A DNA stretch of 24,949 bases from positions 1-24,949 of the IMG/VR virus record IMGVR_UViG_3300045135_000293. One strand, 5' to 3'. The stretch's first letter is position 1; each line of letters starts with the position of its first letter. The position numbers and the translations under genes were made by a program. Below, one piece after another: positions 3,200 through 20,319 of the stretch. A model generated the notes under the pieces. The model ran no database searches. It was given only the letters and a program-made list of their open reading frames with translations, and was not told the DNA's origin. Origin of the DNA: a virus.

Positions 3200-3536
3200 T
3201 TTTTACAAATCACACGCTTGGAAGTCAGACCCTGACGATTTATTTATGGAAAACGTCCTAGCATTCCGCAAGATCGTGCAGCTCTACGATTACGGCACAG
3301 AGTTTTACTTCCCCAACTACCGCGAAGCACCGTGGCATGTGCAAGCAGAAATTGGCGGTGAAAAGATCAACTTCTGGCCTCACAAGATGAAAGCGCATGT
3401 GGAGTACCGCAAAGGCGGGGCAGTAGAGGGCCGCTACGCAATCATTGACCTCATCAACGAGCAGATCGCAAAAGACGCAGACGGTGCATCCAATCCCGAC
3501 TATTGGAGTGATGACGAGTTTGATCTGTTTGAATGA
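3189..3536 (+). CDS. Hypothetical protein (115 aa)
   Basis: The start is the ATG at 3189 (MEYNFYKSHAW) after a GGGAGG Shine-Dalgarno sequence, inside the last codons of the nuclease gene. A longer frame from 3042 lies entirely within the nuclease and is not supported. The protein is rich in aromatic and acidic residues, ends DDEFDLFE and has no membrane segment. I do not recognise the family. The acidic Phe-containing C-terminus resembles the tail by which SSB-type proteins recruit partners, but that is only a resemblance. The stop overlaps the methyltransferase start. Confidence 0.75.
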   Translation: MEYNFYKSHAWKSDPDDLFMENVLAFRKIVQLYDYGTEFYFPNYREAPWHVQAEIGGEKINFWPHKMKAHVEYRKGGAVEGRYAIIDLINEQIAKDADGASNPDYWSDDEFDLFE

Positions 3537-4342
3537 TGCGGCATGTGGACATATGCAGCGGCATCGGCGGTTTTGCGCTGGGCTTTGAATGGGCAGAGTT
3601 AAGCAGCCCAGTTCTTTTCTGCGACATAGAGCCGTGGAGCCGCAAGATTTTAGCAAAGCATTGGCCTGATGTGCCGATTGCAGAAGATGTAAAGGAATTA
3701 GCAAATGACCCAGATGGACTTGTTCCAGACTGCGACATCATTACAGCAGGATACCCCTGCCAGCCCTTTTCACTTGCAGGGGAGCGCAGAGGCAGTGAAG
3801 ATGACAGACATATCTGGCCTTACATTTTCACCATTGTTCAAAGAAAAAGACCCTCTTGGTGCGTTTTCGAGAATGTTTATGGGCATGTCTCTATGGGCCT
3901 CGACGAGGTGCTATCTGACTTGGAAAGGCAAGGCTACGCCGCAAGGCCGTTCATTGTTCCAGCTTGTGCCGCTGACGCGCCTCACAGACGAGACAGAGTT
4001 TGGATCGTCGCCAGAAATGTGGCCGACAGCAACAGCGCGGGACTACAAGGGCGGCAGAACGCCAGAGACACTAGCCAAAGCAGGGCGCAACGAGACAAAC
4101 AGTCTGCCAGACGCAGTGAACGCCCAGATGGGCAAAACTGGCTCCCTGAACCCGCAGTGGGTCGAGTGGCTAATGGGATACCCAGAAGGGTGGACAGACT
4201 TAGAGGATTAGGAAATGCTATCGTGCCGCAGATCGCTATGCGCATAGGCCAGACGATCAAAGCGGTGCATGACATCCCAGCGCAGGGTCACGCGCACAAC
4301 AACGTCAACAAAGAAAAGGAAGACGACAATGCTAAAAATTGA
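3533..4342 (+). CDS. C5 cytosine-specific DNA methyltransferase (269 aa)
   Basis: The ordered motifs of C5 methyltransferases are present. Motif I is DICSGIGGFALGF for S-adenosylmethionine binding. Motif IV is GYPCQPFSLAG with nucleophile Cys76. Motif VI is FENV at 113-115. Motif VIII is HRRDRVWIVA around 151-160. The C-terminal motifs are VGRVANGIPRRVDRL and GLGNAIVPQ (about 209-233). The enzyme methylates cytosine at C5 in an unknown recognition sequence, probably to protect phage DNA from restriction. The region between motifs VIII and IX is short and low in hydrophobic residues, so the target-recognition domain is small. A second protein is encoded in another frame inside this gene (3705-4211). 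The start could be either of two adjacent ATGs. Confidence 0.9.
   Translation: MMRHVDICSGIGGFALGFEWAELSSPVLFCDIEPWSRKILAKHWPDVPIAEDVKELANDPDGLVPDCDIITAGYPCQPFSLAGERRGSEDDRHIWPYIFTIVQRKRPSWCVFENVYGHVSMGLDEVLSDLERQGYAARPFIVPACAADAPHRRDRVWIVARNVADSNSAGLQGRQNARDTSQSRAQRDKQSARRSERPDGQNWLPEPAVGRVANGIPRRVDRLRGLGNAIVPQIAMRIGQTIKAVHDIPAQGHAHNNVNKEKEDDNAKN
3705..4211 (+). CDS. Overlapping-frame methyltransferase-associated protein (168 aa)
   Basis: This frame lies wholly inside the cytosine methyltransferase gene, shifted by one base, yet it looks like a real protein. An AAAGGA Shine-Dalgarno sequence lies about eight bases upstream of MTQMDLFQT. The body carries segments that I recall from stand-alone phage proteins found with methyltransferases: LTWKGKATPQGRSLFQLVP, MWPTATARDYKGG and LNPQWVEWLMGYPEGWTDL. 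The last resembles the LMGFPxGWT segment of C5 methyltransferase C-terminal domains. Because the methyltransferase frame is also intact with all its motifs, both frames seem to be under selection. The role is unknown; target recognition or an accessory subunit is a guess. The family call rests on memory, not a search. Confidence 0.6.
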   Translation: MTQMDLFQTATSLQQDTPASPFHLQGSAEAVKMTDISGLTFSPLFKEKDPLGAFSRMFMGMSLWASTRCYLTWKGKATPQGRSLFQLVPLTRLTDETEFGSSPEMWPTATARDYKGGRTPETLAKAGRNETNSLPDAVNAQMGKTGSLNPQWVEWLMGYPEGWTDLED

Positions 4343-8969: not shown

Positions 8970-9452
8970 ATGGCGGGAAAGCAGCTAAAAAAGACAATAC
9001 TTGCAGACGTTGCCAAGAAGGGCGGCGCGGAATATGTGCGTGAGATGGCGTCTAGCATGACATTAAAGGCTTGGGCTGCTCAGGAATGGAAATGCAGCCG
9101 CAACTACCTGAGCGAGACGATCCGCAGTGTTCCTGAGTATGCTCGTGTATTAGAAGCTGCGCAGTCGGTTTTAGCGGATGCTATGATGGAGGAAAATGTT
9201 GAGATTGCTGATAGCATTCCAGAGACTGCATCGAGTACGCAGATTGCAAAGGTTCGTGAGCAAATGCAGGCACGAAAGATGTTGGCTGCTGGGCTGAATA
9301 GGGATCGGTACGGCTCTGGCCCTCGTGCTGAGATTACGTTGAACCTTGGTGATTTGCACTTGGATGCGCTTAGGAAGATCAGCTCAGACCGCCAGGCATT
9401 GATGGCAGAGGATCGTGAGCGTGAGATGAAGGTTATTGAGCATGACGAGTGA
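8970..9452 (+). CDS. Terminase small subunit (160 aa)
   Basis: The protein sits directly upstream of the large terminase subunit and overlaps it. Its N-terminal part contains a predicted HTH (MTLKAWAAQEWKCSRNYLSETI, residues about 29-50), the expected DNA-recognition element of small terminase subunits. The middle helices (ARVLEAAQSVLADAMMEENVE and KVREQMQARKMLAAGLNRDRYG) match the oligomerisation region and the closing RxRYG-like segment common in this family. It would recognise the packaging site and load the large subunit on concatemeric DNA. The Shine-Dalgarno sequence is GCGAGGCG. Confidence 0.8.
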   Translation: MAGKQLKKTILADVAKKGGAEYVREMASSMTLKAWAAQEWKCSRNYLSETIRSVPEYARVLEAAQSVLADAMMEENVEIADSIPETASSTQIAKVREQMQARKMLAAGLNRDRYGSGPRAEITLNLGDLHLDALRKISSDRQALMAEDREREMKVIEHDE

Positions 9453-10845
9453 CGCCAATCCTTTTGAGGAGTTTACGTTACAGTATATGGATGACCCTGT
9501 GCTGTTCGTTAAGGAGGTGTTAGGCGCTGAGCCGTTGCCGTATCAGGCTGAGTTTTTGAATGCGATTGCGACAGGGGAGCGTCGGATTAGCATACGAAGC
9601 GGTCACGGCACTGGAAAGTCAACATCAGCCTCGTGGGCGATGCTGTGGTATCTGCTGATGCGTTTTCCGAATAAGGTTGTTGTGACTGCTCCCACAAGTG
9701 GACAGCTTTTTGACGCGCTGTTTGCTGAGCTAAAAAGATGGATCGGTGAGCTGCCGAAGCCAATACAAGACCTCTTGACCGTTAAGAGCGATCGAGTTGA
9801 GCTGACGGCTGCGCCGTCTGAGATGTTTATATCTGCCAGAACGTCGCGTGCAGAGACGCCAGAGGCTTTGGCGGGTGTACACAGTGACAATGTTTTGCTT
9901 GTCGTTGACGAAGCGTCTGGTGTGCCTGAGAAGGTGTTTGAGGCTGCTGCTGGTAGTATGTCGGGCCACAATGCCACGACAATCCTTCTCAGCAACCCAA
10001 CGCGGTCAACTGGTACGTTTTATGAGAGCCAGACGCGGATGGCGAACACTTGGTGGACGCAGCGGTGGAGCTGCGTTGATAGTCCGTTGGTGAGTGATGA
10101 GTTCGTTGACGAGATGCGTGAGCGGTATGGGGAAGAGAGCAATGCGTTCCGCATTCGTGTTTTGGGTGAGTTTCCTCTGGCTGATGACGATACGATTATA
10201 CCGTTTCATTTGGTTGATGCTGCGATGAACAGGGATATTGAGGTTGATGATGAGCGTCGGCCTGTCTGGGCTGTTGACCCTGCGCGGTTTGGTAGTGACA
10301 GGACTGCGTTTTGCAAGCGTGTTGGTTCGGTGATTACGGAAATAAAGAGCTGGCGTGGGTTGGACTTGATGCAGACAGTTGGTCGCGTGATGGCAGAATA
10401 TGAGGCACTAAATCCGAGCAACAGACCGTCGGAGATATTGGTTGACAGCATTGGCGTCGGTTCTGGTGTGGTTGATCGGTTGCGTGAGCTTGGTGCGCCT
10501 GTGAGGGGTGTGAATGTGGCTGAAAGTCCGTCTATGGGCGAAACGTATAATAATTTGAGAACTGAGCTGTGGTTTAAGACAAAGGCGTGGCTAGAGGATC
10601 GAGGGTGTAAGCTGCCGCAAGACGATGAGCTTATGGCTGATCTGACAGGCATTCGGTATTCGTTTACGTCGTCTGGCAAGATGGCGGCTGAGAGTAAGGA
10701 TCAGATGAGGCGCAGAGGATTAAGATCGCCTGACTTGGCAGATGCTGTTTGTTTGACAATGGCGAGTGACGCGGCGATGGCGCTGTCTGGGCCTATGTCG
10801 TCTTGGCGGGGTGAGCTGAGAAGGAATTTGCGCGGTATTGCGTAG
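9442..10845 (+). CDS. terL: Terminase large subunit (467 aa)
   Basis: Start taken at the ATG at 9442 (MTSDANPFEEF), with AAGG nine bases upstream; an in-frame TTG lies at 9436. The ATPase domain has Walker A GHGTGKS (54-60), the VVTAPTSGQ segment and Walker B VLLVVDEAS with catalytic Glu near 157. The C-terminal RNase H-like nuclease has AVDPARFGSDRT (Asp279), EILVDSIGVGSG (Asp335) and DLADAVCL (Asp434). This enzyme pumps DNA into the prohead and cuts it. Length is typical. No portal gene follows, which is unusual. Codons are rich in G and T in the third position, unlike the replication operon. Confidence 0.93.
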   Translation: MTSDANPFEEFTLQYMDDPVLFVKEVLGAEPLPYQAEFLNAIATGERRISIRSGHGTGKSTSASWAMLWYLLMRFPNKVVVTAPTSGQLFDALFAELKRWIGELPKPIQDLLTVKSDRVELTAAPSEMFISARTSRAETPEALAGVHSDNVLLVVDEASGVPEKVFEAAAGSMSGHNATTILLSNPTRSTGTFYESQTRMANTWWTQRWSCVDSPLVSDEFVDEMRERYGEESNAFRIRVLGEFPLADDDTIIPFHLVDAAMNRDIEVDDERRPVWAVDPARFGSDRTAFCKRVGSVITEIKSWRGLDLMQTVGRVMAEYEALNPSNRPSEILVDSIGVGSGVVDRLRELGAPVRGVNVAESPSMGETYNNLRTELWFKTKAWLEDRGCKLPQDDELMADLTGIRYSFTSSGKMAAESKDQMRRRGLRSPDLADAVCLTMASDAAMALSGPMSSWRGELRRNLRGIA

Positions 10846-10878: not shown

Positions 10879-10992
10879 ATGGCATATAGTAAAAAGATGG
10901 GCGCTGCGCCTAAGTTTAAGCCTTGCAGGGGCTGCCCAACACCAGTTGCGTGCGCTCGTAAGGGCAAGTGCATGGCGAAGGCGAAGAAGTAA
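10879..10992 (+). CDS. 37-aa basic Cys4 microprotein
   Basis: An AGGAGG Shine-Dalgarno sequence sits seven bases before the ATG. The protein begins MAYSKKMGAAPKFKP and continues with four cysteines spaced CxxC-x5-C-x5-C, then ends in a Lys-rich tail. Four cysteines in a basic peptide suggest a minimal zinc-binding knuckle that could touch nucleic acid. Its TAA overlaps the ATG of the next gene (TAATG). It is too short for most gene callers. Function unknown; location right after the terminase suggests a virion or packaging accessory. Confidence 0.7.
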   Translation: MAYSKKMGAAPKFKPCRGCPTPVACARKGKCMAKAKK

Positions 10993-11162
10993 TGCCAGGA
11001 GCTAAGAAGGGGCTATATGCCAACATTCACGCTAAGCGTAAGCGCATTGAGGCGGGCAGCGGCGAAAAGATGCGCAAGGCTGGAAGCAAAGGTGCGCCGA
11101 CTGCCAAGGCGTTTAAAGCGGCGGCAAAAACGGCAAAGAAGCCAGCGAAAAAGAAAAAGTGA
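10992..11162 (+). CDS. Lys/Ala-rich histone-like small protein (56 aa)
   Basis: MPGAKKGLYANIHAKRKRIE begins a highly basic protein that ends in a Lys/Ala/Pro tail like histone H1 C-terminal tails (AAKTAKKPAKKKK). The YANIHAKRKRI and EKMRKAGSKGAPT segments recur, to my memory, in small proteins of many marine phages beside terminase or portal genes. It could neutralise packaged DNA or occupy the virion interior. It is linked to its neighbours on both sides by overlapping stop/start codons. Confidence 0.75.
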   Translation: MPGAKKGLYANIHAKRKRIEAGSGEKMRKAGSKGAPTAKAFKAAAKTAKKPAKKKK

Positions 11163-11290
11163 TGCCTTATAGTAAGTATAGTCCGAAGCAGAAGAAACTT
11201 GCAGCGATGGCTGGAAATCGTAAGAAAATTACGGCTGCTGATCTAAAAGCTGTTTCTAAGGCTAAGGCAAAGAAGAAGAAAAAGAAGTAA
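11162..11290 (+). CDS. 42-aa basic microprotein
   Basis: The frame MPYSKYSPKQKKLAAMAGNR overlaps the previous TGA (TGATG) and ends with a run of six Lys codons before TAA, which in turn overlaps the next ATG. About a third of residues are Lys or Arg. Motifs KQKKLAAMA and KITAADLKA resemble short DNA- or RNA-contacting tails in small phage proteins. No own Shine-Dalgarno sequence is needed given tight coupling. Function unknown; likely part of the same packaging or virion set as its two neighbours. Confidence 0.65.
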   Translation: MPYSKYSPKQKKLAAMAGNRKKITAADLKAVSKAKAKKKKKK

Positions 11291-11550
11291 TGGCGAAAGA
11301 CCCTAGACTGAGCCGCGTTGGCGTTTCTGGTTATAATAAGCCGAAGAGGACGCCGAGCCATCCGACAAAGAGCCATGTTGTCGTGGCGAAAGAGGGTGAC
11401 AAGACGAAGACCATACGGTTTGGTCAGCAGGGCAAGACAGGCGACAAGACGATGACGAAGCGTGCGAAGTCGTTTAAAGCGCGTCATGCAAAGAACATTG
11501 CCAAAGGCAAGATGTCTGCGGCGTATTGGGCGAATAAGGTTAAGTGGTAG
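11290..11550 (+). CDS. Small basic conserved-type phage protein (86 aa)
   Basis: MAKDPRLSRVGVSGYNKPKR begins a very basic protein that ends KMSAAYWANKVKW. The segments SHVVVAKEGDKTKTIRFGQQG and SFKARHAKNIAKGKMSAAYWA match a pattern I know from small proteins in many marine tailed-phage structural clusters. Three beta-like strands followed by a basic helix are expected. Its role is unknown, although RNA or DNA contact is likely from charge. It overlaps the preceding gene (TAATG), and the next ATG follows its stop directly. Confidence 0.8.
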   Translation: MAKDPRLSRVGVSGYNKPKRTPSHPTKSHVVVAKEGDKTKTIRFGQQGKTGDKTMTKRAKSFKARHAKNIAKGKMSAAYWANKVKW

Positions 11551-13149
11551 ATGGCGACACCTGACGAGATACGCCGAGCGCGAGAGCAATCAAGCATTTT
11601 CAGCAATTTGTTTGATTATGTGCGTGCCAATGATGCGCAACTTGCGTCAGAAGGTCGTCGGCCTGTTCTGGGTGGATTGCTGTCAAAAGAGCCTGTGATA
11701 GGAACTGACACGATCCGTTATGAAGGTTTTGTCCCTATGTTGGCAGGGCTGCTTGAGCCGTTGGCGCGTGGCGTTGATGCTCCTCGTGCTGCGGCTCAGG
11801 GGCTGATACCGCAAGAGGATATGATTGGCGAAGCGTTTGGCACTGCTGGGACTGCTATGCTTGGTGGCGGTGCGGTTGCTAAGCCTGCGGGATCGTTGGG
11901 CGCGAATACAATGCGTGTTTATCATGGCGGTGATTATAGATATGGTGATGATATAAATGCGCCATTCTTTGTAACGCCAGATCGGAAGGGTGCAGAGTAT
12001 TTTGCGCCAGATGATGTGCCTTTTAGTTCTGTTTCAAACTTTGAGGCAGATTTTAGCAATGCTCTTGATATAGACACGCCAGCAGGTCAGGCTCGATTGT
12101 CTGAGATATTGACCAAACATGGGATTGAGCATGACTACAATCCTGATGGTGTTTATGAAAAGATTGACATTTATGATGTGCCTGATGATGTGTCGTATGA
12201 CGGCACAAACTTGCTTGATGCTGCGTATATCCCGAAAGTTCAAGACGCCTTGAAGAAAGAGGGCGTCAGCGCACTTTACAGCTCGGCAGACGTACTAGAG
12301 AACTCAAGCATTCCAGCTTATGCTGTTGTTGATCCTACTATTTTAGGTGCCAACGCCTCAAAAAGCGCTGGCCTCCTATCAGTCGCATCAGACGTATCTG
12401 CACGCGGCGATCAGATATTGAATATGCTAAAGTCTGGCAGAGGGTCGGAAGTGACTGACGCGATGCTAGATATGGGCGACAGTGTAAAAAATACGCAGTT
12501 AAATCAGTACCTTGCGGCAAATTATGATTTGCCTATGGATGAAGCAAGCCGATTGGCTCGTGCGCGTGAGATGGGGTTTGACATTGATGAGGTTCAATAT
12601 CATGGCACAGCTCCATCAATGTATTCAGATGAGAATTTTTCTCCTGACATCACTGCTTTTATACCTGGTGTGAAAGGTCAATTGGGGGCAGGTGTTTATG
12701 TTGCTCCTGACGTTAGAAAAGCCAATAAATTTGCGAGTGCTGGTGAAGTCAATCGAGGCGACTTTGATCCCAATAAAGCTGTACCCAAAGGCGGCTCTGT
12801 GCTGCCAGTTTACATAAGAAGCTCAAACCCAGCGTCTTATGGTGAAATGAGAAACGCGCAGTATGGCTTAGAGAATGTTTCTGGATTTAATGATTTATCA
12901 ATGAGAGGTACGCAGGCTCTTTCAGACAAAGGTTTTACAGGCGTTAGAACTGGCAACGAGGAAAATGTTTTTGACCCCAATAACATCAGATCAATAAATG
13001 CGCGGTTTGATCCTCGTCTGTCGGAGCTAGAAAACATCTTGGCAGCCAACGCATCACCAATAAGTGGCCTTTTGGCGCAATCTGGTGTATCAAGTGAACA
13101 AGCGCAGAGGATAGAAGACTATCTGTATAGAACAGGATTGTTACAGTAA
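11551..13149 (+). CDS. Protein with two ADP-ribosyltransferase-like domains (532 aa)
   Basis: After a hydrophobic, Gly/Ala-rich segment (residues about 60-115) two ART-PolyVal-like domains appear. Domain 1 (121-265) has MRVYHGG with the Tyr-His-Gly motif at 124-126, FFVTPDRKGAEYFA at 139-152 and AYAVVDPTIL at its end. Domain 2 (about 342-488) has VQYHGT at 348-353, GAGVYVAPDVRKA at 380-391, VLPVYIRSSNP and the closing VFDPNNIRSINARFDP. YHGT plus VFDPxxIRS is characteristic of this ART group. Such phage enzymes can be injected and modify host proteins, as with T4 Alt. The location in the structural operon suggests packaging in the virion. Domain 1 is more divergent and may be inactive. Confidence 0.7.
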   Translation: MATPDEIRRAREQSSIFSNLFDYVRANDAQLASEGRRPVLGGLLSKEPVIGTDTIRYEGFVPMLAGLLEPLARGVDAPRAAAQGLIPQEDMIGEAFGTAGTAMLGGGAVAKPAGSLGANTMRVYHGGDYRYGDDINAPFFVTPDRKGAEYFAPDDVPFSSVSNFEADFSNALDIDTPAGQARLSEILTKHGIEHDYNPDGVYEKIDIYDVPDDVSYDGTNLLDAAYIPKVQDALKKEGVSALYSSADVLENSSIPAYAVVDPTILGANASKSAGLLSVASDVSARGDQILNMLKSGRGSEVTDAMLDMGDSVKNTQLNQYLAANYDLPMDEASRLARAREMGFDIDEVQYHGTAPSMYSDENFSPDITAFIPGVKGQLGAGVYVAPDVRKANKFASAGEVNRGDFDPNKAVPKGGSVLPVYIRSSNPASYGEMRNAQYGLENVSGFNDLSMRGTQALSDKGFTGVRTGNEENVFDPNNIRSINARFDPRLSELENILAANASPISGLLAQSGVSSEQAQRIEDYLYRTGLLQ

Positions 13150-13769
13150 TGGCACTTACAACCTATGATGAATTAAAAGCAAGCATTGCGGATACATTGA
13201 ACCGCGATGATTTGACTGCGGTCATTCCTGATTTTATCACGATGGCTGAGAGCGACATGAATATGAATGTTCGGCACTGGCGTCAGGAAGAGCGTGCGAT
13301 TGCGCCGATTGATACGCAGTACAGCGCCATTCCTTCTGACTTTCTTGAGGTGATTAGCTTCCACATTAGCTCTGGCGACTTTCGTGCATTGGAGCTGATT
13401 AGCAAGGCGGAGATGCTAGATCGTCGGTATAAGTCTGGCGATGCGTCTGGCAAGCCTGCGTTTTATGCGATCACTGCTGGCGAGATTGAGGTGTATCCAA
13501 CGCCTGATGGGGAATACACGACTGAGCTTTATTATTTCTCACGGTTGGACGCTCTGTCGGCTTCTAACACAACAAACTGGATGCTTGAGTATTTCCCCAG
13601 CGCTTATTTGTATGGCGCTTTGGTTCACTCTGCACCTTATTTGAAGGATGACGCTCGTGTTCAGGTTTGGGCGAGTTTGTACGCAAGCACAATAAATGCT
13701 ATAAACCTAGAAGGCGAACGGTCTAAAACTGGCGGCTCTGGACGCCGCATGAGAATTAGGAGTTACTAA
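13149..13769 (+). CDS. Phage head-tail adaptor protein (206 aa)
   Basis: The sequence has the pattern of podovirus adaptor proteins: an N-terminal helix MALTTYDELKASIADTLNR, then IPDFITMAESDMNMNVRHWR, a beta segment AIPSDFLEVISFHI, and the central KPAFYAITAGEIEVYPTPDG. It closes with SAYLYGALVHSAPYLKDD and a basic tail. Adaptors form a ring beneath the portal and bridge it to the nozzle. Its start overlaps the ART gene stop (TAATG). Normally portal and capsid genes stand just upstream; here they are absent. Confidence 0.82.
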   Translation: MALTTYDELKASIADTLNRDDLTAVIPDFITMAESDMNMNVRHWRQEERAIAPIDTQYSAIPSDFLEVISFHISSGDFRALELISKAEMLDRRYKSGDASGKPAFYAITAGEIEVYPTPDGEYTTELYYFSRLDALSASNTTNWMLEYFPSAYLYGALVHSAPYLKDDARVQVWASLYASTINAINLEGERSKTGGSGRRMRIRSY

Positions 13770-14165: not shown

Positions 14166-14197
14166 ATGTATCCACATCAGAAATGGAGTGGATACAT
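14166..14197 (+). promoter_or_regulatory. Hairpin sequestering the HNH gene start
   Basis: ATGTATCCAC (14166-14175) and GTGGATACAT (14188-14197) form a perfect 10-bp stem around 12 bases. The second arm contains the first two bases of the HNH start codon (14196-14198). The GGAG ribosome-binding sequence (14185-14188) lies at the loop-stem border. Folding would block translation in transcripts read through from upstream genes, as known for homing endonuclease genes in T-even phages. Confidence 0.75.
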
Positions 14198-14702
14198 GAT
14201 TGATTATAAGTTGGCGCATGCTTTGTTCGAATATAATCCTGATACAGGAAGTCTGGTTTGGAGAGTGCACACCAGCGCTACGCCCAAAGGGAAAGAAGCT
14301 GGCACGTTATCGGACAAAAAGAAAGAGTACTACACAAGGTACAGAAACGTGTCTGTGTTAGGTGATCGCTATAAGGCTCACAGAATAATCTGGCTTATGC
14401 AGACAGGCAGTTGGCCTGAAAAGTACATTGACCACATTGATGGCAACGGCCTGAATAACAAATGGTCAAATTTGCGAGAGGCTTCTCCATCAGAAAATAT
14501 GGCGAACCAAAAAGTACGATCCGACAGCACAAGTGGCATAAAAGGCGTTTCGTATGACAAAAAAAGAAATATGTGGTATGTCTACATTGACATAAACAAG
14601 AAGAGAAAGCACTTAGGGCGCTTTGAAACTCGTGAAGAAGCTGCTGCGGCTAGAATTGCAGCAGAAAAAGTTTATCACGGCGCGTTCGCAAAAGGGGCGT
14701 AA
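14196..14702 (+). CDS. HNH homing endonuclease with AP2-like domain (168 aa)
   Basis: Start chosen at 14196 ([14 protein letters not shown]), at the edge of the regulatory hairpin. The N-terminal domain [14 protein letters not shown] and the [33 protein letters not shown] core form the HNH_3 endonuclease, with catalytic HxxxN-type residues in [10 protein letters not shown] (about 84-93). A C-terminal AP2-like DNA-binding domain follows: [37 protein letters not shown]. This is the classic free-standing homing endonuclease of phages. It sits between two structural genes and ends in TAATG with the next gene, so its translation may help start the downstream gene. No intron boundary is seen. Confidence 0.92.
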   Translation: [168 protein letters not shown]

Positions 14703-17379: not shown

Positions 17380-20319
17380 ATGGCATTGATCGACTTGAAC
17401 ATTCCAGCAGGTGTTTACCGAAATGGAACAGATTTACAATCACAAGGCCGTTGGCGCGATGCAAACTTAGTCAGATGGCATGACGGTGTGATGCGCCCAA
17501 TCGGCGGTTGGCGCACACGTTCTGATAGTGCAGGCGCAAACAAGCTGCGCGGCATGATTACTTGGTCTGACAATGACGCAGATCGTTTCATTGCGACAGG
17601 CTCACTAAATCATCTTTATGCATATAACTCAGCAGGCACGCAGTTTCACATTACCCCAGCAACGCTAACAGCAGGCCGTGAGGATGCTTTGTCGTTCACT
17701 GGTTTTGGCGGCGGCACATTTGGCAGCTATGCATGGGGCGTTGCGCGTCCTGACACATCAAACGTTCTACCTGCAACAGTCTGGCAGTTTGACACTTGGG
17801 GCGAATACCTGATTGCCATGACAGAAGACGATGGCGTGATTTATGAGTGGGACTTAACAACCACCACAGGTTCTGAGCTTGTTACGAATGGCGAATTTGC
17901 GACAGACACAGATTGGACAAAGGGCGTAAACTGGTCAATCTCTGGCGGCGTTGCAGAGTATCAGCAGCTCATTGGAACGTTTGACGCGAATGACGATGCG
18001 ATTGTTGATGCGGCAACTGACACAATTACAATAACAAGTCATGGCTTTAGTGATGGCGATGAGGTTAAGTATGTCGTACCTGCCGCGCCTGCAACAGCGA
18101 TTGATGGCCTAACTGATGGCACGAATTACTTTGTTGTCGGTTCTACAGCAAACACATTGCAGCTTGCAGCCACATCAGGTGGTGCTGCTATAAACTTAGT
18201 TGCAAACAACAGCCTTACTTTTGATGGAAATGACCTTGCTGTTGTTGACGCGGCAAACGACAAAATTGTTGAAACAAACACCTTTTCAAATGGTGATTAT
18301 GTCACATACAGCAATGGCGGCGGTGCAGACATTGATGGGCTGACAGACGGAAGCAACTATTACATAGTCAATGCTTCTGGCTCAGAGTTCCAACTTTCAC
18401 TGACATCTGGCGGTGCGGCTGTTGCGCTAACCGCAAAAGCTACTCTATCATTCGATGGGGATGATGCCGCAGTTGTTGATGTTGCAACTAATCGCATCGT
18501 GCAAATCCATTCGTTTGAGAATGGCAATGAGGTGCTTTATAGCGCAGGCGGTGGCGTTGCGATTGGTGGTCTAACAGACGCAACAAATTACTTTATCGTA
18601 AACCGCACAGGCGGCGGCTTCCAGCTTTCAGCAACGTCTGGTGGGGCAGCTATTGATCTGACTGCAAACAATAGCGTTACAATCGACAGTGAGGATGCTG
18701 CGGTTGTGGACACTGTTAATGATAAGATCATCACAGCGAACACATTTAGCGATGGCGATGAAGTTGTTTACTCTGCTGCTGGTGGCACAGCTATCGGTGG
18801 CCTAACAGATGGAACAAACTATTTTATTGTAAACTCGTCAGCAACTGAGTTTCAGCTTTCAGCAACATCTGGTGGCGCGGCTATTACTTTAACCGCAGTA
18901 GGTGTTGGCACCGCGCATGTGTTCCGTCAGGACATTGGCTCAAGCCATAGCTTAGTTCAGCAATTAGGTTCCTCTCACAACTTCCGCGTAAATGTTGGAT
19001 CGGGCCACAGAATTGAGCGCCAGAACTACGGCAACCTAGATCAGACTGTGAGCGGCCTAACCACAACAGCAACAGACTGGGCGCACGATATTATCGTAAC
19101 CCTGATTGATCCGAATGACGATGGCGATGCCACAACTGTACCTGCGCCGACTGTGAAGGTCACAGGCACAACAAGTACAACTGTGCTGGTCAATCAAACG
19201 CTGTCTGTCGGCGAGAACCGCTTTAGGTTTAAGGCTGACGATACTGAGGTAAAGATTGAGATTATCCCAAGCGCGGCAGATATGCCAAACTTTGATGTGG
19301 ATGACATTTCGCTGAAGCAGTATCCAACTGCGCAGCCTTTGGCGAATGCACCAGTGGACAATGAAAGCGTGGTTGTAACTGAAGAGCGCTTTGTGTTTGC
19401 TTTGGGCGCAGGCGGCAATCCTCGTAAGGTGCAGTGGTGTGATCGTGAGGACAACACAACTTGGACACCAGCAGTCACAAACGAAGCAGGTGACTTAGAG
19501 CTAAACACAAGCGGCGCCTTGATGAAGGGCATGCGTGTGCGTGGTCAGACCTTGCTGCTCACAACACGCGATGCGCATGTGGCGAACTACATCGGCCCAC
19601 CTTATGTGTATGGCTTTGAGCGCGTTGGCACATCGTGCGGTCTAGTTGCAAGAGAGGCTGCGGTTGTGGTTGATGCAGGTGCTTTCTGGATGGGCGCAAA
19701 TTCATTCTACACATACAACGGTAGCTCTGTTTCTGAACTGCCTTGCGATGTGTCAGACTATGTGTTTAACGACATGAACAAAGCGCAGATCAGTAAAGCA
19801 TTCGGCATGTCTAACGCGATGTTCGGTGAGATTTGGTGGTTCTACCCATCATCTGCTGAAACAGAAAACAACCGCTATGTCGTGTTTAACTATGTTGAGG
19901 GTACATGGTACATCGGTGAGCTAGATCGTACTGCTGGTGCAGATCGCGGTGCATTCCGTCAGCCTATGATGGCTAAAGCTTCAGATAAGAAAATCTACGA
20001 GCATGAAGTTGGCTTGGAGTATGACAACCTAACACCTTTTGCAGAAAGCGGGCCATTCCGCATTGGCACTGGGGATCAGGTCATGGCTGTGACTGAAATG
20101 CTGCCAGATGAAAAGACGCAAGGCGATGTGAATGCCACGTTTAAAACGCGGTTCTATCCAAACGACACAGAGCGCAGCTATGGGCCATATACAATGAGCA
20201 ACCCAACAAGCGTGCGCTTTACTGGGCGTCAAGTTCGGATGCGCGTAGAGGGTGTGAACTATTCAGACTGGCGTGTTGGCATCAATAGGCTTGATGTGAT
20301 TGCTGGGGGTCGTAGATGA
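17380..20319 (+). CDS. Tail nozzle / P22 gp10-like stabilisation protein with repeat insertion (979 aa)
   Basis: The first 160 residues (PAGVYRNGTDLQSQGRWRDANLVRWHDG, GGWRTRSDSAG) and the last 320 (ERFVFALGAGGNPRKVQWCDRED, GMRVRGQTLLLTTRDAHVANYIGPPYVYGFERVGTSCGLV) match the P22 gp10-like tail nozzle family. In the middle, a carbohydrate-binding-like jelly-roll (ELVTNGEFATDTDWTKGVNW from about 168, NFDVDDISLKQY near 645) is interrupted by four repeats of about 77 residues (about 199-508). Each has the AVVDAANDKI, FSDGDEVVY, GLTDGTNYFIV and FQLSATSGGAAI motifs. The nozzle closes the portal and contacts the fibres; the inserted modules may contact host glycans. Confidence 0.82.
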   Translation: MALIDLNIPAGVYRNGTDLQSQGRWRDANLVRWHDGVMRPIGGWRTRSDSAGANKLRGMITWSDNDADRFIATGSLNHLYAYNSAGTQFHITPATLTAGREDALSFTGFGGGTFGSYAWGVARPDTSNVLPATVWQFDTWGEYLIAMTEDDGVIYEWDLTTTTGSELVTNGEFATDTDWTKGVNWSISGGVAEYQQLIGTFDANDDAIVDAATDTITITSHGFSDGDEVKYVVPAAPATAIDGLTDGTNYFVVGSTANTLQLAATSGGAAINLVANNSLTFDGNDLAVVDAANDKIVETNTFSNGDYVTYSNGGGADIDGLTDGSNYYIVNASGSEFQLSLTSGGAAVALTAKATLSFDGDDAAVVDVATNRIVQIHSFENGNEVLYSAGGGVAIGGLTDATNYFIVNRTGGGFQLSATSGGAAIDLTANNSVTIDSEDAAVVDTVNDKIITANTFSDGDEVVYSAAGGTAIGGLTDGTNYFIVNSSATEFQLSATSGGAAITLTAVGVGTAHVFRQDIGSSHSLVQQLGSSHNFRVNVGSGHRIERQNYGNLDQTVSGLTTTATDWAHDIIVTLIDPNDDGDATTVPAPTVKVTGTTSTTVLVNQTLSVGENRFRFKADDTEVKIEIIPSAADMPNFDVDDISLKQYPTAQPLANAPVDNESVVVTEERFVFALGAGGNPRKVQWCDREDNTTWTPAVTNEAGDLELNTSGALMKGMRVRGQTLLLTTRDAHVANYIGPPYVYGFERVGTSCGLVAREAAVVVDAGAFWMGANSFYTYNGSSVSELPCDVSDYVFNDMNKAQISKAFGMSNAMFGEIWWFYPSSAETENNRYVVFNYVEGTWYIGELDRTAGADRGAFRQPMMAKASDKKIYEHEVGLEYDNLTPFAESGPFRIGTGDQVMAVTEMLPDEKTQGDVNATFKTRFYPNDTERSYGPYTMSNPTSVRFTGRQVRMRVEGVNYSDWRVGINRLDVIAGGRR
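17978..18905 (+). repeat. Four in-frame tandem repeats of about 231 bp
   Basis: Repeats begin near 17978, 18209, 18444 and 18675. Each encodes a short beta-rich module with the core GLTDGTNYFIV and LSATSGGAAI. Copies 3 and 4 are most alike and copy 1 most divergent, as expected from stepwise duplication. They are inserted in the nozzle gene without breaking frame. Confidence 0.8.

What the first reader, a model, noticed from the sequence alone, without database searches (positions are those of the whole stretch)
11551..13149. Two tandem ADP-ribosyltransferase-like domains in a virion-cluster gene
Domain 1 (VYHGG, FFVTPD) and domain 2 (YHGT, GVYVAPD, VFDPNNIRSINARFD) are both ART-PolyVal-like and lie between packaging genes and the head-tail adaptor. 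The N-terminal hydrophobic stretch may help delivery. Packaged ARTs modify host RNA polymerase or other targets in T4, but this one is short, duplicated and in the place where portal and capsid genes normally stand. The domains are diverged, so one may have a different target or be a pseudoenzyme.
Basis: partly seen in the sequence, partly recalled or inferred. Interest (0 to 1): 0.75.

Follow-up and report, generated by a model that had tools for sequence, protein, structure and literature searches.

The report
Swappable effector gene in marine podoviruses
A gene in a marine bacterial virus encodes a protein with two enzyme-like domains of the ADP-ribosyltransferase kind, and close relatives of the virus carry other domains in the same slots, so it looks like an interchangeable set of payloads that the virus probably packs and injects to subdue its host.

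Summary
ORF 11551-13149 (532 aa) carries two ART-fold domains between TerL and an SU10-type adaptor. Predicted structures of both halves have the same best solved match, an ART-like domain of a cyanophage A4 pre-ejectosome protein (Z 8.5 and 8.4), followed by known ARTs. D2 keeps a complete H351-Y383-E470 set. D1 keeps H125 but has F140 and A256, so it is a candidate pseudoenzyme; it is under purifying selection (dN/dS 0.07).

Two readings fail. Portal and capsid are not displaced: in relatives they lie about 15 kb downstream, beyond the end of this fragment. The N-terminus has no membrane helix.

New here: the gene is modular. A constant N-terminal domain, linker and tail frame two slots. Slot A holds this ART, other ARTs, GNATs, ParB-like or peptidase-like domains, or nothing; slot B holds different ARTs. 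Modules change at sharp borders between otherwise 80-93% identical genomes, and slot-A content does not follow the neighbouring adaptor's tree. Repeated ANxSxxxG motifs mark module ends.

Best explanation: a compact, polymorphic relative of phage polyvalent proteins, probably packaged and ejected. Packaging, catalysis and target are inferred. One isolate, Octadecabacter DB virus 2, carries the gene.

The parts
11551..13149 (+). 532-aa gene with two ART-fold domains
11551..11919 (+). N-terminal constant domain (residues 1-123), mostly helical
   Evidence: alignment A1, 37 viral loci, helices in the AF2 model
11908..12336 (+). Slot A payload: ART-fold domain D1 (about residues 120-262)
   Evidence: AF2 pTM 0.73; best solved match 9k3a_B Z 8.4, then diphtheria toxin, anti-CRISPR protein 6kyf, NatT, ParT, tankyrase
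11923..11925 (+). D1 H125 codon, the retained ART histidine
   Evidence: invariant in A6
11968..11970 (+). D1 F140 codon, where D2 and most slot-B relatives have Tyr
12316..12318 (+). D1 A256 codon, where the slot-B family's commonest residue is Glu
12340..12378 (+). Separator 1 ILGANASKSAGLL at the end of payload A
   Evidence: motif scan, alignment to separator 2, 0 of 5000 shuffles as good
12373..12576 (+). Constant linker (residues 275-342)
   Evidence: dN/dS 0.02-0.03; conserved before slot B in 54 representative relatives
12583..12996 (+). Slot B payload: ART domain D2 (about residues 345-482), H351 Y383 E470
   Evidence: Pfam ART-PolyVal; 9k3a_B Z 8.5 then PARP/tankyrase
12601..12603 (+). 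D2 H351 codon
   Evidence: H in 49 of 53 rows with a residue
12697..12699 (+). D2 Y383 codon
12958..12960 (+). D2 E470 codon
   Evidence: Glu is the commonest residue at this position, 20 of 58 distinct sequences
12997..13146 (+). Constant C-terminal tail (FARFDPRL...GLLQ in relatives)
13036..13074 (+). Separator 2 ILAANASPISGLL
9436..10845 (+). Terminase large subunit upstream
   Evidence: phrog_2, E 6.9e-45
13149..13769 (+). SU10-type head-tail adaptor, start codon overlapping the stop of the ART gene
   Evidence: PF24175 E 1.3e-36

Best explanation
The gene is a compact, modular effector gene of a marine podovirus, related to phage 'polyvalent proteins'. A constant N-terminal helical domain probably tethers the protein to the virion or ejection apparatus (inferred). 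Two payload slots separated by a constant linker and ending in ANxSxxxG separators carry interchangeable enzyme domains (shown). In this phage both slots hold ART domains: D2 is probably an active mono-ADP-ribosyltransferase acting on host proteins early in infection (inferred), and D1 is probably a catalytically weak or dead ART kept for binding a target or partner (inferred). Payloads are exchanged between close relatives by recombination in the conserved segments (shown from sequence), as expected for effectors in an arms race with hosts (inferred).
For: ART fold of both domains. The best match of both is residues about 1418-1600 of a cyanophage A4 pre-ejectosome protein (9k3a chain B, identical to Anabaena phage A-4L ORF27L), so an ART-like domain is known in a pre-ejectosome protein of a podovirus. 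Gene order TerL - gene - adaptor is conserved, with the adaptor start 0-4 nt after this gene in most close relatives. Polyvalent-associated domains occur in sister genes: LPD23 (E 2.9e-25), DUF6782 metallopeptidase, GNAT. Module exchange: sharp borders in window coordinates at 11901-11930/12343-12349 (slot A), 12581/13000-13042 (slot B) and 11548/11842 (N) between genomes otherwise about 80-93% identical; one putative GNAT-like module at 96% identity in three architectures (L009, L027, L048) and N-domains 98% identical with different payloads (L060/L108); L010 lacks slot A with a clean LGAN|ASKSAG junction. Slot-A type is not clustered on the adaptor tree: 20 changes, shuffled mean 19.7. Purifying selection on D1 (0.067) and D2 (0.05-0.08).
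Against: No proteomic or biochemical evidence that the protein is in the virion, is ejected, or has NAD-dependent activity. D2 scores below the Pfam gathering cut-off, and the structural Z values (8.4-8.5) are moderate. The ART-like domain in the A4 pre-ejectosome may be structural there. The full-length model has low pTM (0.42), so the arrangement of domains is unknown. In the wider family the acidic third residue is variable.
Confidence: 0.66

Rival explanations
1. The protein is mainly a structural neck or ejectosome component; the ART folds are repurposed scaffolds with no enzymatic role.
For: Both domains match a domain of a pre-ejectosome protein best; D1 lacks the Tyr and the acidic residue; the gene is tightly linked to the adaptor.
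Against: Structural proteins are not expected to have a domain replaced by GNAT, ParB-like or peptidase-like domains, or to lose a whole slot, between close relatives. D2 keeps H, Y and E.
Confidence: 0.15
2. An effector made late in the infected cell (for example superinfection exclusion or late host takeover, in the manner of T4 ModA/ModB) that is not packaged.
For: Co-expression with late genes fits as well; no packaging signal is known for the N-domain.
Against: Position between packaging and neck genes, a constant N-terminal domain independent of payload, and homology of the payload types to polyvalent proteins, predicted to be injected (PMC5512222); the A4 pre-ejectosome match.
Confidence: 0.15
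3. Compatible with the main reading: D1 and D2 are both active ARTs with different targets; D1 uses a non-canonical catalytic set (H125 with another acidic residue such as those in the DVLEN or DP motifs).
For: D1 is under strong purifying selection (dN/dS 0.067); some H-Y-x mono-ARTs lack the Glu (own knowledge); the acidic residues of the DP and DVLEN motifs are largely kept in the D1 relatives.
Against: Both the Tyr and the Glu positions are replaced (F140, A256), the same in L004 and L030.
Confidence: 0.3

Closest known systems
Phage polyvalent proteins (Iyer et al. 2017, PMC5512222), ART-PolyVal domain PF18760
   Same: Same ART family, same companion domains across the family (GNAT, ParB-like, metallopeptidase, LPD23), late virion gene context, predicted delivery with DNA.
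   Different: Compact (about 335-906 aa) rather than giant; fixed genome slot between TerL and adaptor; a constant N-domain, linker and tail with payloads swapped in fixed slots. The 2017 paper states that polyvalent proteins did not conform to such a polymorphic-toxin-like organisation.
Anabaena phage A-4L (cyanophage A4) ORF27L, PDB 9k3a chain B, pre-ejectosome protein
   Same: Its residues about 1418-1600 form an ART-like domain that is the best solved match of both D1 and D2; it has YHGT and GTYFS motifs.
   Different: 1717 aa, a large multi-domain ejectosome protein; no Pfam match for its ART region; the window protein lacks the ejectosome body.
Octadecabacter Antarctic DB virus 2 (OANV2) gp6, MW805364
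   Same: Orthologous gene, same position, same N-domain, linker, slot-B ART and tail.
   Different: Slot A holds a different domain (ParB-like by eye, no Pfam support); annotated only as hypothetical protein.
T4 Alt
   Same: Phage ART packaged and injected, modifying host RNA polymerase (PMC5512222).
   Different: R-S-E catalytic type rather than H-Y-E; not modular.
Bacterial polymorphic toxins
   Same: Constant leader plus swappable effector modules.
   Different: No secretion-system leader recognised; immunity genes were not looked for; here the presumed carrier is a virion.

Membership tests
ART superfamily (PARP/diphtheria-toxin-like) | ART fold | tested here: met
   D2: top hits are ARTs, 9k3a_B Z 8.5, tankyrases Z about 7. 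D1: 9k3a_B Z 8.4, diphtheria toxin 6.6, 6kyf 6.3, NatT 6.1. No unrelated fold ranks above them.
ART superfamily (PARP/diphtheria-toxin-like) | H-Y-E/D catalytic set in D2 | tested here: met
   H351, Y383, E470 aligned over 62 rows; activity itself not tested
ART superfamily (PARP/diphtheria-toxin-like) | H-Y-E/D catalytic set in D1 | tested here: not met
   H125 kept, F140 for Tyr, A256 for Glu
ART superfamily (PARP/diphtheria-toxin-like) | NAD-dependent ADP-ribosylation | not testable with these tools
   needs biochemistry
ART-PolyVal (PF18760) | Profile score above the curated cut-off | tested here: inconclusive
   D2 26.7 bits against 31.2; D1 none, its relative L030 21.4 bits; 18 of 39 relatives match at E up to 0.01
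Polyvalent proteins | Two or more domains of disparate activity in one polypeptide | tested here: inconclusive
   Met at family level (ART with GNAT; LPD23 with metallopeptidase); in the window both payloads are ARTs
Polyvalent proteins | Encoded beside late virion genes | tested here: met
   TerL upstream, adaptor 0-4 nt downstream in most close relatives
Polyvalent proteins | Delivered into the host with the DNA | not testable with these tools
   no proteomics; the OANV2 paper PMC9239159 has no occurrence of 'mass spectrometry'
T4 Alt/VIP2 ART clade | R-S-E active site | tested here: not met
   H-Y-E in D2; clade definition from PMC5512222
Podovirus ejectosome proteins (A-4L ORF27L type) | ART-like domain shared with 9k3a_B | tested here: met
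Podovirus ejectosome proteins (A-4L ORF27L type) | Presence in the in-capsid ejectosome | not testable with these tools
   needs proteomics or cryo-EM
Polymorphic toxins | Constant leader with recombining payload modules | tested here: met
Polymorphic toxins | Cognate immunity gene next to the toxin | not tested
   small upstream ORFs are conserved but were not examined for this

The most novel reading that the evidence does not exclude
Marine podoviruses of Rhodobacterales (and perhaps other hosts) keep, at one fixed position between terminase and adaptor, a single virion-delivered protein built like a polymorphic toxin: a constant delivery head and two sockets whose enzyme payloads are exchanged combinatorially at conserved ANxSxxxG separators faster than neighbouring genes diverge, including pseudo-ART payloads used as targeting domains.
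Probability: 0.45. Interest if true: 0.75.

Novelty: new variant of a known kind. Interest (0 to 1): 0.58.

Why it matters
Polyvalent proteins are best known as large multi-domain proteins of scattered phages and conjugative elements. Here a small version sits at a fixed locus in many marine podoviruses and near-identical genomes carry different payloads, which gives matched natural pairs (for example L005/L009, L007/L008, L061/L107) for asking which payload counters which host or defence. One isolate with a cultured host exists, so packaging, ejection and activity can be tested directly. It would also be a case of ART domains carried by podovirus virion proteins, in line with a solved pre-ejectosome structure.

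Tried and rejected
PHROGs has no match for the window protein and no informative one for ten relatives. Sequence search of solved structures with the family profile or D2 alone found nothing relevant; only fold comparison linked it to solved ARTs. Annotated phage records hold only one clear homologue. The idea that the gene replaces portal or capsid was rejected. The idea of a transmembrane N-terminus was rejected. A D1-specific scan gave only two further kinds of D1 sequence (L004 and L030 types), so D1 conservation rests on few sequences. Viral scans return the same contig under several locus ids; counts of loci are therefore not all independent genomes. ParB-like assignments in slot A are by eye except L055 (ParBc_2, E 0.0027, below the cut-off); the GNAT-like module of L009/L027/L048 also has no Pfam hit. 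The paper on the A4 structure is not held, so nothing is claimed about what its authors say of the ART-like domain.

Full report
The window is a virus record of 24,949 bases, evidently a fragment. The reported ORF, 11551-13149 on the + strand, is real and 532 aa long. Its start codon directly follows the stop of ORF 11290-11550 and its stop overlaps the start of the adaptor gene by one base, so it is probably translationally coupled within the late operon. Upstream lies TerL (9436-10845, phrog_2), downstream an SU10-type adaptor.

Are the two domains ARTs? D2 matches ART-PolyVal at E 1.1e-5 when given alone, below the curated cut-off. D1 has no direct match, but its relative in L030, 49% identical, matches the same family, and the D1-group profile aligns over its whole length with the D2-group profile (probability 90.7, E 1.2e-6). 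AlphaFold2 with relatives gave a full-length model (pLDDT 73, pTM 0.42) and a better D1 model (pLDDT 75, pTM 0.73). Structure comparison gave the same best solved match for both domains, residues about 1418-1600 of chain B of 9k3a, the cyanophage A4 pre-ejectosome (Z 8.5 for D2, 8.4 for D1), followed by PARP/tankyrase for D2 and by diphtheria toxin, 6kyf (an anti-CRISPR protein), NatT, ParT and tankyrase for D1. That chain is identical to Anabaena phage A-4L ORF27L, which has the YHGT and GTYFS motifs in that stretch. Against predicted viral proteins the top named hits are ART-PolyVal and other polyvalent-type proteins.

Catalytic residues. In D2, H351 and Y383 are the family's commonest residues, and E470 stands at the position, nine before the I of IRS, where Glu is the commonest residue in the wider family (20 of 58 distinct sequences). 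By the spacing of the strand it corresponds to the Glu of PARPs (own knowledge of PARP1 NEYIVYD). In D1, H125 is kept but the Tyr is F140 and the Glu position is A256, the same in L004 and L030. D1 is nonetheless under strong purifying selection (dN/dS 0.067 against L004; 0.148 against L030, with saturated dS). It is therefore a maintained domain, possibly a pseudoenzyme, not a decaying copy. Because some active mono-ARTs lack the Glu (own knowledge), inactivity is not shown.

Portal and capsid. In Octadecabacter Antarctic DB virus 2 the order is TerS, TerL, two small genes, gp6 (the orthologue), adaptor, tail genes, hydrolase, portal (17.4-19.5 kb), capsid (20.9-21.9 kb). Portal homologues were found in six of seven related viral records and capsid homologues in all seven; in G002 the portal lies at 22.6-24.6 kb and the ART gene at 6.4-8.0 kb. 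The window ends in a lysozyme-domain gene that corresponds to the hydrolase before the portal. Nothing has been displaced.

Modularity. Relatives from viral contigs and one Rhodobacteraceae MAG contig share constant parts: the N-domain (residues 1-123 here), a linker (275-342) and a C-terminal tail (479-531), found by profiles. Between N-domain and linker (slot A) they carry D1-type ART (window, L004, L030), other ARTs (L005, L007, L023, L034), GNAT domains (L008, L075, L091, L099, L102, L111), a putative GNAT-like domain without Pfam support (L009), ParB-like domains (L055 with weak Pfam support; L002, L056, L115 by eye), LPD23 with metallopeptidase-like sequence (L044, L079 by Pfam; L014, L027 by eye), or nothing (L010, L013). 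Slot B holds several ART types (compare W, L004, L013), and in another branch linker, ART and tail are replaced by a 330-residue domain without known family. Some relatives have other N-termini joined to the same linker, ART and tail.

The exchanges are sharp. Blastn against near relatives shows about 80-93% identity up to 11901-11930, no similarity across slot A, and resumption at 12343-12349; slot B breaks at 12581 and resumes at 13000-13042; the N-domain can break at 11548 and resume at 11842. One putative GNAT-like module is 96% identical in L009, L027 and L048, which have three different architectures; L060 and L108 have N-domains 98% identical with different slot-A payloads; L034 and L036 share the C-terminal domain at 99% with different slot-A domains. 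On a tree of the adjacent adaptor (38 rows), slot-A type needs 20 changes, shuffled mean 19.7, so it is not clustered by descent; near neighbours such as L005/L009 and L007/L008 carry different payloads. The slot-A labels used there were assigned by hand from the sequences.

Separators. Module ends carry an ANxSxxxG motif: ILGANASKSAGLL after D1 and ILAANASPISGLL after D2. It occurs 56 times in 90 family proteins (not all independent) against 3.0 expected on shuffling. The two stretches here align over 30 residues better than any of 5000 shuffles. In L010, which lacks slot A, the junction reads LGAN|ASKSAG at the motif. Codons at the two copies differ, so conservation is at the protein level; whether it serves as a hinge, a processing site or a recombination point is open.

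Mechanism and limits. Shown: ART folds (by prediction and comparison), residue states, gene order, module exchange. Inferred: packaging and ejection (from gene position, the payload-independent N-domain, kinship to polyvalent proteins of PMC5512222, and an ART-like domain in a solved pre-ejectosome protein), ADP-ribosylation of host proteins by D2, and a binding role for D1. ARTs near head-packaging genes have been read as packaged before (PMC9503650). The target is unknown. The polyvalent protein paper states that those proteins did not follow the leader-plus-variable-payload organisation of secreted toxins; this family does, which is why it is filed as a new variant of a known kind.

Noticed in passing
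window 3533-4342 (+) and 3705-4211 (+): A C5-cytosine methyltransferase (PF00145 E 4.1e-35; phrog_363 E 6.9e-70) contains, wholly nested in another frame of the same strand, a 168-aa ORF that itself matches methyltransferase PHROG phrog_1008 (E 1.2e-28). Both reading frames of the same DNA look protein-coding.
   Followed up: partly
window 10968-11162 (+) and 11290-11550 (+): Two small basic genes before the ART gene (phrog_16028, phrog_7595; the second weakly resembles a stretch of the 'minor head protein and DNA pilot' family phrog_220). In some relatives the first lies instead between the ART gene and the adaptor. Possibly packaged DNA-binding proteins.
   Followed up: partly
L015, L026, L029, L030, L034, L038-L043, L047: A domain of about 330 residues (starts DPLGYQKTKMR) with no Pfam or PHROG family takes the place of linker, ART and tail; distant relatives lie just before the portal gene in Phage C72C1 and in Roseobacter phage CRP-902 (context checked for C72C1 only).
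   Followed up: partly
window 14166-14702 (+): An HNH plus AP2 gene (PF13392 E 8.6e-16, PF00847 E 1e-7), probably a free-standing homing endonuclease, inserted in the tail gene cluster.
   Followed up: no
window 17380-20319 (+): A 979-aa virion protein with about four repeats of a roughly 65-residue unit (four stretches to phrog_4711).
   Followed up: no
L136 (MW202573.1): A P22-like phage has an ART/polyvalent-type gene between the tail adaptor and the stabilisation and injection protein genes, another instance of the neck-gene position.
   Followed up: no
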